A stretch of DNA of 64,000 bases from Mesorhizobium sp. L-8-3 (GTDB lineage: Bacteria > Pseudomonadota > Alphaproteobacteria > Rhizobiales > Rhizobiaceae). Both the position numbers and the translations under genes were made by a program. The stretch is from positions 124,001-188,000 of the forward strand of contig NZ_AP023262.1 of NCBI RefSeq assembly GCF_016756615.1, in the 5' to 3' direction. The notes beneath the pieces were generated by a model, which did not search any database, had not been told where the DNA came from, and saw nothing but the letters and a program-made list of their open reading frames with translations. Below, piece after piece: positions 28,332-32,812 of the stretch (position 1 is the stretch's first letter; every line of letters begins with the position of its first letter).

Positions 28332-28525
28332 AAAGAAGGCCCAAGCCTACCCGTCCAGAGATACCAGGCGCGGGGCTGTCGCAGGCGGGACATCCCGGAA
28401 AGACGATCTCTCTCCTCCCCGACCCTAAATCAGCCAATCTCTCCATCGCAGCCACGCCAAACAGCCACCCTTTCCGGCCGCCGCCGCGTAGTCTCGTTCC
28501 GAAGCCGAACGGGAGGCCCCTTTCG

Positions 28526-30019
28526 ATGTCCGCGCATTTCGCCCGCATGCACCGTCATGACGCTCTCGACCGGCTGGCCGACCGCCGGCTGCTGCGCGAA
28601 CTCGCTTATGTCGACGGCCAATGGACGGCCGGCGCGGCCGGACGGGGCTTCGAGGTGCGCGATCCGGCCGGCGGCGAGTTGGTCGGCTGGGTGGCAGGAT
28701 TGGACACCGCCGAGACCGGCGCCGCGATCGATGCGGCCGCGCGCGCCTTCCCGGCCTGGCGCAGCATGGCCGCGCAGGACCGCGCGCGCATCCTGCGCGA
28801 CTGGTTCGAACTGATCATGTCCGCGCGGGACGACCTGGCTTTGTTGATGACGCTGGAGCAGGGGAAGCCGCTCAGGGAGGCGCTGGGCGAGATCGATTAC
28901 GCCGCCTCCTTCGTGGAATGGTATGCCGAGGAAGGAAAGCGGGCGAACGCCGAAGGCGTCACCAGCCATCTCGCCCATGCCGAGATGATCGTGCGCCGCG
29001 AGCCATTGGGCGTCGTCGGTCTCGTCACACCGTGGAACTTCCCTTCGGCGATGCTGACCCGCAAGGCCGCCGCCGCACTTGCCGCCGGCTGCACGGTGGT
29101 CGCGCATCCCTCGTCCGAGACGCCGCTTTCCGCCCTCGCGCTCGCCGAGCTCGGCGGACGCGCCGGCCTGCCCGCCGGTGTCTTCAACGTCGTGACCGGC
29201 GAGGCCGAGACGATCGTCGGCCGCCTGTGCGACGACGCGCGGGTGCGGGCGATGAGCTTCACCGGTTCCACCGCCATCGGCCGGCTGATCGCGGGACGAT
29301 GCGCGCCGACCATGAAACGCCTGGTCATGGAGCTCGGCGGCCATGCCCCGCTGATCGTGTTCGCCGACAGCGACCCCGCCAAGGCAATCAGCATCGCACT
29401 CGACGCGAAATTCGCGACATCAGGCCAGGATTGTCTGGCGGCCAACCGCATCTATGTCGAGCGCCCGGCCTATGAGGAATTCTGCCGGCACTTCGCCGCG
29501 GCCATAGCGGAGCTGAACACGGCGCCGGGCCTCGACGAGCGCGCTGATATCGGCCCGCTGATGCATGAGCGCGCCATTGCCAAGGTCGAGCAGCAGGTGG
29601 CCGATGCGCTGGCACGAGGCGCACGCCTGCTCGCAGGCGGCCGACGCCATGCGGCCGGGCCCCTGTTCTTCGAACCGACGCTGCTCGCCGACGTGCCCGA
29701 CGACGCGCTGATCATGCGCGAAGAGACCTTCGGGCCCGTCGCCGCAGTGGTTCCCTTCGACGACGAAGCCGAAGTGGTGGCGCGCGCCAACGACACCGAA
29801 TACGGCCTCGTGGCCTATGTCGTGACGGAGAACGGCGCCCGCCAGTTGCGCATGGGCCGCGCCCTCGACTACGGCATGGTCGCGATCAACCGGGTGAAGA
29901 TCACGGGCGCGCCGATCCCCTTCGGGGGCGTCAAGCAGTCCGGCCTCGGCCGCGAAGGGTCGCGCCATGGGCTGGAGGCCTTCACCGAGCTCAAATATCT
30001 CTGCCTCGACGCTGCTTGA
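28526..30019 (+). CDS. doeC: Aspartate-semialdehyde (succinate-semialdehyde-like) dehydrogenase DoeC
   Basis: DoeC oxidises L-aspartate 4-semialdehyde, formed by DoeD, to aspartate, the last step of ectoine breakdown. The 497-residue aldehyde dehydrogenase is of the succinate-semialdehyde type. The catalytic Asn is in VTPWNFPSAM, Glu in MELGGHAPLIV and Cys in SGQDCLAANR. The start is the ATG at 28526 (MSAHFARM) with GGGAGG ten bases upstream; an open upstream frame passes through the repeat and is not coding. The paired doeD gene lies downstream but is separated by a repeat and an IS110 element. Confidence 0.9.
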   Translation: MSAHFARMHRHDALDRLADRRLLRELAYVDGQWTAGAAGRGFEVRDPAGGELVGWVAGLDTAETGAAIDAAARAFPAWRSMAAQDRARILRDWFELIMSARDDLALLMTLEQGKPLREALGEIDYAASFVEWYAEEGKRANAEGVTSHLAHAEMIVRREPLGVVGLVTPWNFPSAMLTRKAAAALAAGCTVVAHPSSETPLSALALAELGGRAGLPAGVFNVVTGEAETIVGRLCDDARVRAMSFTGSTAIGRLIAGRCAPTMKRLVMELGGHAPLIVFADSDPAKAISIALDAKFATSGQDCLAANRIYVERPAYEEFCRHFAAAIAELNTAPGLDERADIGPLMHERAIAKVEQQVADALARGARLLAGGRRHAAGPLFFEPTLLADVPDDALIMREETFGPVAAVVPFDDEAEVVARANDTEYGLVAYVVTENGARQLRMGRALDYGMVAINRVKITGAPIPFGGVKQSGLGREGSRHGLEAFTELKYLCLDAA

Positions 30020-30051: not shown

Positions 30052-30227
30052 TACCCCTCATCCGACCTCGCTTCGCGAGGCCACCTTCTCCCACAAGGGG
30101 AGAAGGCTGGAGCCTGGCTTCAGCGGTTCTGCAAATCATCGACGTCGACAACTAGCGGAAGCATCGCTGCAGCCTTCCCTTCTCCCCTTGTGGGAGAAGG
30201 TGGCCTCGCGAAGCGAGGTCGGATGAG
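30052..30227. repeat. Mosaic palindromic repeat, copy 1
   Basis: Two inverted arms (30052-30105 and 30174-30227) share ACCTCGCTTCGCGAGG and CCTTCTCCCACAAGGGGAGA, around a 68-base centre. A second copy lies inverted at 52929-53381 and is similar over its centre too, so this is a dispersed element of about 180 bases, like rhizobial RIME-type repeats. The right end is cut short where the IS110 element begins. Confidence 0.8.
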
Positions 30228-30237
30228 CAACCATGAT

Positions 30238-31188
30238 TCAGGCGCTGGCATTTTGAGGGTTCCACGGCGTTCCTCTGGCGAGGACAGCGTTGGCCATGTG
30301 GACCAGCTTTCTGGCGCAAGCGACGATCGCCTGTTTGTAGGTCTTGCCCGCGTCGACCAGACGTTTCCTGAAGGCCACGAGGATCGGGTTCCAGTGGTTG
30401 GCGGCCGAGAAGGCCGCCATGTAGACGGCCTTGCGCAGCCGCCGGCGTCCACCCGCGATGCGGCGCTGTCCGGCATGGGTTCCACTGTCGTGGTCGAAGG
30501 GGGCCACGCCGACGAGCGCCGCCGCCTCGGCTCGGCTCAAGCGGCCGAGTTCGGGCATGCGCACGACGAAGACCAGGGCGGTGATCTCGCCCAGGCCGGG
30601 GATGCTCAGCAGCAGGGCGAACCGCTTGGCCAGATCGGCATGGGCCTTCACCTTTGCAATGAGCTTGGCGAGCTCCTTGGACTTGCGCTTGCTCAACCGC
30701 CGGATCTCGGCCTCGAGGTAGCGCCGATGCGCCGGATCGCTGAAGCGGTCACGCCGGGTCTCGTGCCGGGCAATGTCGTCGGTGAGGGCGTCGATCAGCG
30801 TCATGTGCTCCTGAAAGGCCGCCAGCCGCGGATCGGCCGCCGCGCCGCCGCTGCCCAGCGCCGCCGTGGCGGCGAGGATCAGATCGGCATCGATCGCATC
30901 ATTCTTGGCACGGCGACCGCGAAAGATGCGATAGCCGTGGACCTGACGCGGATCGAAGACCTTGACCGCGAAGCCCACCGCTTCGAGCGCCGCTCTGACG
31001 GCGGCTTCGTAGTTGCCGCTCGCCTCCATGCCGACCCGTTCGACCCCGGCCGCCGTCAGCCGCGCCGCCAGCCGGCGGTGGCCGGCGGCGTCGTTGGTCT
31101 CCACAAAACGCTGCCCGTCGAAAACGGCAACGTCGAGCGTGGCCTTGGAGACATCCACACCGGCGCATTTCATGCTAGTATCGTTCAT
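30238..31188 (-). CDS. IS110-family transposase (DEDD recombinase)
   Basis: The 316-residue protein has both IS110 domains. The N-terminal RuvC-like DEDD domain has Asp12 (AGVDVSK), Glu55 (VGMEASGNYE) and Asp97/100 (KNDAIDADLI). The C-terminal Transposase_20 domain has the helix-hairpin-helix LLSIPGLGEITA and the catalytic Ser235 in HDSGTHAG. All key residues are present, so the enzyme looks intact. IS110 recombinases are guided by a bridge RNA made from the element's non-coding end. The transposase is antisense to the flanking doe genes. Confidence 0.95.
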   Translation of the reverse strand: MNDTSMKCAGVDVSKATLDVAVFDGQRFVETNDAAGHRRLAARLTAAGVERVGMEASGNYEAAVRAALEAVGFAVKVFDPRQVHGYRIFRGRRAKNDAIDADLILAATAALGSGGAAADPRLAAFQEHMTLIDALTDDIARHETRRDRFSDPAHRRYLEAEIRRLSKRKSKELAKLIAKVKAHADLAKRFALLLSIPGLGEITALVFVVRMPELGRLSRAEAAALVGVAPFDHDSGTHAGQRRIAGGRRRLRKAVYMAAFSAANHWNPILVAFRKRLVDAGKTYKQAIVACARKLVHMANAVLARGTPWNPQNASA

Positions 31189-31390
31189 CTTCGTCGACCC
31201 AACCTTGCGTTAATGCGAACCAGGGTGTTCAAGCAACCATCCGGGTCCGATGAAGAAAGTCGACTGCGATCACGCTCATCCTCAGCCAGCAACGGCTCAG
31301 GGGTTTCCGATCCGACAATCGACCGGCTCTGCAGGGGTGGCCACCCCTGCAGAGCCAACTCCTCATCCATAGCAGGATTTCCTCATACAA
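31189..31390 (-). ncRNA. Candidate bridge RNA region of the IS110 element
   Basis: IS110-group elements encode a guide (bridge) RNA in the non-coding left end, upstream of the transposase. Here that region is about 200 bases and contains a perfect 32-base palindrome (31325-31356), with GGCTCTGCAGGGGTGG as its left half. It has no credible coding frame. The RNA's exact ends and its target- and donor-binding loops cannot be set by eye, so this marks a region and not a mapped transcript. Confidence 0.4.
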
Positions 31391-31438
31391 GGGGTCTTTG
31401 CGTTCCTGCCCTCATAACATCACATCGGAGTGTCTGAC

Positions 31439-32812
31439 ATGCTCGACCACTCGAACGAACTCGCCGCCTGGGACCGGGATCATTTCTTCCATCCTTCGAC
31501 CCATATGGGCATGCATGCGCGGGGCGAGACGCCGAACCGGGTGATCGCCGGTGGCGAGGGCGTCTACATCACCGACACGTCGGGGCGCACGAGCCTCGAT
31601 GCCTTTGCCGGCCTTTACTGCGTGAATGTCGGTTACGGCCGCAAGAAGATCGCCGATGCGATCGCCGAGCAGGCCGGCCGGCTCGCCTACTACCACGCCT
31701 ATGTCGGGCACGGCACGGAAGCCTCGATCCGACTTTCCAAGATGATCGTCGACCGCGCCCCCGAAACCATGAGTAGGGTCTATTTCGGCCTGTCGGGTTC
31801 GGACGCCAACGAGACCAACATCAAGCTGATCTGGTACGCCAACAATGTGCTCGGTCGCCCCAAGAAGAAGAAGCTGATCTCGCGCTGGCGCGGCTATCAT
31901 GGTTCCGGCGTGATGACGGGCTCGCTCACCGGCCTGGAGCTCTTCCACAACGCCTTCGACCTGCCGCGCGCGCCGGTGCTCCACACAGAAGCGCCGTACT
32001 ATTTCCGCCGTGCCGATCGCTCCATGAGCGAGGGGCAGTTCTCGCAGCATTGCGCCGACAAGCTGGAGGAACTGATCCTGGCCGAGGGACCGGACACGGT
32101 CGCCGCCTTCATCGGCGAGCCGGTCCTCGGCACCGGCGGCATCGTTCCGCCACCGGCCGGCTATTGGCAGAAGATCCAGGCGGTGCTCAACAAATACGAC
32201 GTCATGCTCGTCGCCGACGAGGTCGTGACCGGCTTCGGACGGCTCGGCAGCATGTTCGGATCGGACCACTACGGCATGGAGCCCGACCTCATCACCATCG
32301 CCAAGGGTCTGACCTCGGCCTATGCACCGTTGTCGGGCGTGATCGTCTCGGAGAAGCTTTGGCAGAAGCTCGTCGAGGGATCCGACCGGCTGGGTTCGTT
32401 CGGCCACGGCTGGACCTACTCGGCGCATCCGATCTGCGCGGCCGCCGGCATCGCCAATCTGGAGCTGATCGACGAACTCGACCTGGTGCGGAACGCCGGC
32501 GAGACCGGCGCCTATCTTCGTGCCGGCCTGGCTTCCGCGCTTGCCGACCACAAATATGTCGGCGACATCCGCGGCGAAGGCATGCTGGCGGCCGTCGAAT
32601 TCGTCGCCGACAAGGACGACCGCGTGTTCTTCGATGCAGCAAGGAAGGTCGGACCGCAGGTGGCGGCAGCTCTCGCCGAGCGCGGCGTTATCGGGCGTGC
32701 CATGCCGCAAGGCGACATACTCGGCTTTGCCCCGCCGCTCTGCCTGACACGCGATGAAGCCGACATCGTCGTGGCGAAGACCGTGGAGGCGGTGAAAACC
32801 GTCCTGGGGTGA
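31439..32812 (+). CDS. doeD: Diaminobutyrate aminotransferase DoeD
   Basis: DoeD is the class III aminotransferase that converts L-2,4-diaminobutyrate to aspartate semialdehyde. The protein is 457 residues from the ATG at 31439, which follows GGAG (31427-31430) at normal spacing; a GTG at 31430 overlaps that site and is less likely. The PLP lysine lies in ITIAKGLTSAYAPLSG, with the Asp of LVADEVVTGFGRLG contacting the PLP nitrogen. Its ribosome-binding site is intact, but the IS110 element sits about 50 bases upstream, so its transcription may now depend on readthrough across the element or on a new promoter. Confidence 0.9.
   Translation: MLDHSNELAAWDRDHFFHPSTHMGMHARGETPNRVIAGGEGVYITDTSGRTSLDAFAGLYCVNVGYGRKKIADAIAEQAGRLAYYHAYVGHGTEASIRLSKMIVDRAPETMSRVYFGLSGSDANETNIKLIWYANNVLGRPKKKKLISRWRGYHGSGVMTGSLTGLELFHNAFDLPRAPVLHTEAPYYFRRADRSMSEGQFSQHCADKLEELILAEGPDTVAAFIGEPVLGTGGIVPPPAGYWQKIQAVLNKYDVMLVADEVVTGFGRLGSMFGSDHYGMEPDLITIAKGLTSAYAPLSGVIVSEKLWQKLVEGSDRLGSFGHGWTYSAHPICAAAGIANLELIDELDLVRNAGETGAYLRAGLASALADHKYVGDIRGEGMLAAVEFVADKDDRVFFDAARKVGPQVAAALAERGVIGRAMPQGDILGFAPPLCLTRDEADIVVAKTVEAVKTVLG

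What the first reader, a model, noticed from the sequence alone, without database searches (positions are those of the whole stretch)
30228..31390. IS110 element inserted at the end of a palindromic repeat, splitting doeC from doeD
The repeat's right arm matches its second copy up to about 30227 and stops ten bases from the transposase stop. GGGGT, the expected continuation, appears at 31391 beyond the element. IS110 recombinases use a bridge RNA that base-pairs with target DNA, so this element may be guided to this repeat family. The insertion lies antisense between two genes of one ectoine pathway and could impair doeD expression.
Basis: partly seen in the sequence, partly recalled or inferred. 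Interest (0 to 1): 0.6.

Follow-up and report, generated by a model that had tools for sequence, protein, structure and literature searches.

The report
RNA-guided jumping gene targeting repeats
A small mobile DNA element of the IS110 family sits at the edge of a palindromic repeat because its built-in guide RNA appears to spell out that edge; this is a known kind of RNA-guided jumping gene, here with guide, target and six of six insertions in the host genome documented.

Summary
A 1,164-bp IS110 element (window 30226-31389, or equally 30228-31391; a CT/AG core dinucleotide lies at both ends) is inserted at the outer end of a ~180-bp palindromic repeat, antisense between doeC and doeD. In 17 of 19 relatives with both genes nearby they lie 9-84 bp apart; here 1,410 bp.

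The genome holds three copies, a right-end relic, and a palindromic relic best read as two insertions. All six lie at the same repeat end (ACCC|CT|CATCCG), of which the genome has about 200.

The 5' untranslated region encodes a bridge-RNA-like transcript whose loop carries both halves of this target (AAACCCCT and GGATGAG) in IS621 order. Across eight related elements guides change together with targets (2 of 40,320 permutations do as well), and the fold is supported by covariation.

REP-targeting IS110 elements are already known (IS621, ISPpu9/10, ISPa11 and, in rhizobia, ISRm19, very probably a 46% identical relative). This is a new member of a known kind. The effect on doeD is untested.

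The parts
30226..31389 (-). IS110 element, 1,164 bp (equivalently 30228-31391; the 2-bp core AG/CT is present at both ends)
   Evidence: Boundaries from three copies with different outer flanks; the C1:4021158 copy is identical over 1,166 bases including both cores
30238..31188 (-). Transposase/recombinase CDS, 316 aa; candidate DEDD residues D12, E55, D97, D100 and serine S235 at the expected motifs
   Evidence: NF033542 'IS110 family RNA-guided transposase' 182.8 bits over cut-off 140; PF01548 and PF02371 over cut-off; motif positions; matches ISCro4 and IS621 chains in PDB
31189..31389 (-). Left end encoding the predicted bridge RNA (5' UTR of the transposase gene)
   Evidence: RNA fold z-score -4.05; consensus structure with 23 of 30 pairs showing changes on both sides, 0 of 500 shuffles as high
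31325..31356 (-). Perfect 32-nt palindrome, the 5' stem-loop of the predicted bridge RNA
   Evidence: helix 1 covaries in relatives
31299..31307 (-). Left target guide, GAAACCCCT (same sense as the target's left half ACCC plus core CT)
31275..31281 (-). Right target guide, GGATGAG (reverse complement of core CT plus CATCC)
31232..31240 (-). Predicted left donor guide ATGGTTGCT, identical to the element's right end plus core
   Evidence: Sequence; conserved in most relatives
31204..31209 (-). Tentative right donor guide region (CGCAAG; pairs CTTG at the left end)
   Evidence: Sequence only; inferred from the IS621 layout
30228..30237 (-). Short right end, ATCATGGTTG, between the stop codon and the core at 30226-30227
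30053..30227 (.). Palindromic repeat, interrupted at its right outer end; its left outer end (ACCCCTCATCCG from 30053, + strand) is an unoccupied second target
   Evidence: 89 matches in the genome, both strands counted; consensus of ends
31390..31395 (.). AGGGGT, the last six bases of the interrupted repeat, displaced by the element
28505..30019 (+). doeC (ssd)-like aldehyde dehydrogenase (start approximate)
   Evidence: adjacent to doeD in relatives
31430..32812 (+). doeD (atf)-like class III aminotransferase (ATG at 31439 also possible)

Best explanation
This is an IS110-group insertion sequence that moves by bridge-RNA-guided recombination. Its left end is transcribed into an RNA with a 5' hairpin, a target-binding loop and a donor-binding loop. 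The target-binding loop pairs with both strands of ACCC-CT-CATCC, the outer end of an abundant palindromic repeat of this host; the donor-binding loop pairs with the joined element ends. The recombinase exchanges strands at the CT core, so the element always lands at the repeat's outer edge with its transposase pointing into the repeat. The repeat supplies about 200 landing sites. One such repeat lay between doeC and doeD and was hit. Shown: boundaries, target uniformity, guide-target match and covariation, conserved RNA fold. Inferred: expression of the RNA, circular intermediate, chemistry, any effect on doeD.
For: Six of six insertions or relics at the same repeat end; 203 target sites versus 2 in the reversed control. 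Guide halves AAACCCCT and GGATGAG, starts 25 nt apart, 14 of 15 positions including core. With guides read at fixed alignment columns in eight elements, only 2 of 40,320 assignments of targets to RNAs reach the observed sum; in the six with distinct targets own pairs average 9.5 of 12 non-core positions versus 4.1 for swapped pairs. Covarying RNA structure. Order of guides as in IS621 (left guide 5', right guide 3'; PMC11208160). Recombinase in the IS110 family with DEDD and serine motifs.
Against: No transcript or transposition assay. The window's own guide-target match, taken alone with free position, is reached by 1 of 300 shuffled RNAs, so the strength comes from the comparative test. Relatives E (first copy) and F match only weakly when the guides are sought freely. 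Group C misaligned in the guide region and was left out of the permutation test. The last base of the left guide does not match core T in B, C and E.
Confidence: 0.93

Rival explanations
1. The recombinase (or a host REP-binding factor) recognises the palindrome or its cruciform rather than a sequence spelled by the guide.
For: Targets of W, A, D, H and most E copies lie in palindromic repeats.
Against: The insertion is at the asymmetric outer edge, not the axis. Some relatives' copies lie in flanks that do not look like a palindromic repeat yet resemble the guide (Sinorhizobium L100/L105 GTCGGCAC|CT|TCTCC; Defluviicoccus L101). Guides covary with targets.
Confidence: 0.04
2. The three copies spread by duplication of one IS-bearing repeat rather than by separate insertions.
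For: Copies share the junction with the repeat.
Against: Left flanks are unrelated beyond ACCCCT, and the repeats next to the window copy and the C1:4021158 copy are only about 85% alike while the two elements are identical.
Confidence: 0.02
3. The site matters functionally: the insertion was kept because it lowers doeD expression or alters ectoine use.
For: It separates two genes that are 9-84 bp apart in 17 relatives, is antisense, and adds strong hairpins.
Against: Target choice is fully explained by the repeat; no promoter- or terminator-like site found; no expression data.
Confidence: 0.1

Closest known systems
IS621 (IS110 family, E. coli) and its bridge RNA
   Same: DEDD/serine recombinase, bridge RNA in the left end, left guide then right guide around a short hairpin, CT core, REP target (PMC11208160, PMC11208158)
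   Different: Different guides and target; the target is the outer edge of a longer (~180 bp) palindromic repeat; recombinases only distantly related (E 1.9e-25)
ISRm19 (IS110 family, Sinorhizobium meliloti)
   Same: REP-targeting IS110 element in rhizobia, 4 of 4 copies in REP, two on pSymB (PMC1525189); the S. meliloti 1021 pSymB element found here is 46% identical to the window's and also has two places there
   Different: It cuts inside the repeat at GGCAC|CT|TCTCC, not at the outer end; its guides match that site. That it is ISRm19 is inferred; the record carries no annotation there
ISPpu9, ISPpu10, ISPa11 (Pseudomonas, listed as IS110 family)
   Same: All copies in REP sequences at one position (PMC1525189)
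   Different: Other repeat families; not compared by sequence here
seekRNA of ISEc21 (IS110 group)
   Same: Guide RNA upstream of tnp with bottom-strand match before top-strand match (PMC11187229)
   Different: Different target; not compared by sequence here

Membership tests
IS110 family (IS110 group) | Recombinase with RuvC-like DEDD domain (PF01548) and C-terminal Tnp domain with conserved serine (PF02371) | tested here: met
   Both over curated cut-off; NF033542 over cut-off; motifs located
IS110 family (IS110 group) | Insertion at a short core without longer target duplication; no shared inverted ends | tested here: met
   Junctions of three copies share only CT
IS110 family (IS110 group) | Long non-coding region upstream of the transposase (IS1111 group has it downstream) | tested here: met
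   201 nt upstream, 10 nt downstream
Bridge-RNA-guided element | Structured RNA with 5' hairpin and two internal loops | tested here: met
   the donor-loop stem has only three supported pairs
Bridge-RNA-guided element | Target loop complementary to both strands of the target and covarying with it | tested here: met
Bridge-RNA-guided element | Donor loop complementary to both sides of the joined ends | tested here: inconclusive
   Left donor guide ATGGTTGCT is clear; right donor guide matches only CTTG
Bridge-RNA-guided element | RNA is expressed, binds the recombinase and is required for recombination | not testable with these tools
   Needs experiment
REP-targeting IS | All copies at one position of a repetitive palindrome | tested here: met
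   Three copies and three relic insertions, six of six

The most novel reading that the evidence does not exclude
The clade to which this element belongs repeatedly rewrites its guides to fit whichever palindromic repeat is abundant in its current host, even cutting different points of one RIME-like repeat type, so that guide evolution tracks host repeats; insertion at both ends of one repeat followed by collapse leaves new perfect palindromes.
Probability: 0.35. Interest if true: 0.5.

Novelty: new member of a known kind. Interest (0 to 1): 0.38.

Why it matters
It turns a guess from raw sequence into a documented natural guide-target pair for an RNA-guided recombinase, with a clade of relatives whose guides differ. 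Such natural retargeting series help to learn the pairing rules of bridge RNAs, and they show how non-coding repeats act as landing sites for mobile DNA in these bacteria. The principle itself is already established.

Tried and rejected
A first reading of GTCGGAT upstream of ACCCCT as the right guide was dropped: it lies in a conserved stem and the order would be wrong, while GGATGAG downstream fits the IS621 layout. A free-position search for guides is weak for single elements, so fixed alignment columns were used. Rfam gave only sub-threshold microRNA-like matches to the palindrome, which are artefacts of its hairpin. The genome-contig scan found only one relative and the class-wide search none beyond the host. 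The exact target of group B is not an abundant repeat in its genome. No sigma-70-type promoter or terminator-like site was found between doeC and doeD.

Full report
Observation. The window holds an IS110-family transposase gene at 30238-31188 (-). To its left a palindromic repeat starts with ACCCCTCATCCGACC at 30053 and ends CGGATGAG at 30227; the expected last bases AGGGGT appear at 31390-31395. The genome (one contig of 8,445,954 bases) has this element at three places: the window, C1:4021158-4022328 (identical over 1,166 bases) and C1:8046783-8047736 plus 8045633-8045855 (split by another insertion). In transposase orientation all read ACCC-CT-[TGTATGAGG...ATCATGGTTG]-CT-CATCCGACC, with unrelated sequence further left. 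The CT is present on both sides, so the element is 1,164 bp and its exact end is ambiguous by two bases.

Relics. At C1:1042891 only the right end remains, 27 contiguous bases up to the core, again followed by CATCCGACC. At C1:240829-240938 a perfect 110-bp palindrome consists of ACCCCT, the first 65 bases of the element and their mirror image, ending AGGGGT. Beyond ACCCCT the two flanks are unrelated (3 of 20 bases alike), so simple fold-back copying of one flank does not explain it. The simplest account, which is inference, is that two copies sat at the two ends of one repeat, left ends outward, and that recombination between their identical 32-bp palindromes removed everything between. Counting it as two insertions gives six of six at the same site.

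Target supply. CCCCTCATCCG occurs 203 times in the genome against 2 for the reversed pattern; the ends of the repeat copies mostly read ACCCCTCATCCGACC. Each intact palindrome offers two targets, one at each outer end in opposite orientations.

Bridge RNA. The 201 nt upstream of the transposase fold well (z = -4.05) into a 14-bp 5' hairpin, a second stem with an internal loop around a small hairpin, and a third stem. Over nine elements the consensus structure has 23 of 30 pairs with changes on both sides, 83.6% of cells paired, and a covariation score above all 500 shuffles and far above slid controls. In the second loop stand GAAACCCCT and, further 3', GGATGAG: the left half plus core in the sense of the target, and the reverse complement of core plus right half. 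This is the order described for IS621 (PMC11208160) and for the IS110-type seekRNA (PMC11187229). The third loop carries ATGGTTGCT, which equals the element's own right end plus core.

Covariation of guide and target. Relatives were collected from 100 close genomes, 397 of the order, 385 of the class, one named-genome scan and plasmids. Boundaries come from multiple copies (groups B, C, D, E) or from the conserved donor ends (A, F, G, H). With guides read at the window element's alignment columns in eight elements, the sum of own-pair matches (76 of 96 non-core positions) is reached by only 2 of 40,320 assignments; over six distinct targets by 1 of 720 (the true one), mean 9.5 versus 4.1 of 12. 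W, A and H share the target CCCCT|CATCCG although A is 67% and H about 41-43% identical, and their host genomes hold 203, 38 and 65 exact sites with 2, 0 and 0 in controls. Group D's target CCATCCTTCGAGA occurs 75 times in its host and never in the window's genome. Group B's exact target is found once in its host, so repeat targeting is common but not universal in the clade. Group C, excluded because it misaligned, carries GACGCCCC and ATCAGAG beside the target GACGCCC|CT|CTGA.

Gene context. In 17 of 19 relatives in which both genes were seen, doeC and doeD lie 9-84 bp apart; here 1,410 bp, of which 1,164 are the element. The repeat must have come first and the element second (inference from target specificity). 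Effects on expression are untested.

Place among known systems. The PDB relatives by sequence are ISCro4 and IS621 recombinases. REP targeting by IS110 elements has been known since IS621 and was catalogued in 2006 for ISPpu9, ISPpu10, ISPa11 and ISRm19 (PMC1525189); bridge RNA guidance explains it (PMC11208160). The Sinorhizobium relative found here is very probably ISRm19 (two places on pSymB of strain 1021, as in the 2006 table), though the record carries no annotation there. This element is therefore a new member of a known kind, well documented.

Noticed in passing
L020 1501-1610 (G000:C1:240829-240938): Perfect 110-bp palindrome made of the element's first 65 bases and their mirror image between ACCCCT and AGGGGT; best read as the collapse of two copies at both ends of one repeat.
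   Followed up: yes
L025 1501-1530 (G000:C1:1042891-1042920): Right-end-only relic of the element, still attached to the repeat.
   Followed up: yes
L008/L081 (G000:C1:8045633-8047736): Third copy is split near the transposase start by another insertion of about 0.9 kb, and its adjacent repeat is cut by yet another element.
   Followed up: partly
L100, L105: Sinorhizobium relatives inserted at a guide-matching site whose flanks do not look like the usual palindromic repeat, apparently coding DNA.
   Followed up: partly
G000:C1:7000000-7280000: Many other IS110-family transposases, several in near-identical copies, concentrated in one stretch of the chromosome.
   Followed up: no
G000:C1:7180368-7181714: A second doeD-like aminotransferase, 59% identical, in the same genome.
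   Followed up: no
window 30060-30223: The palindromic repeat draws sub-threshold Rfam microRNA matches, an artefact of its long hairpin.
   Followed up: yes
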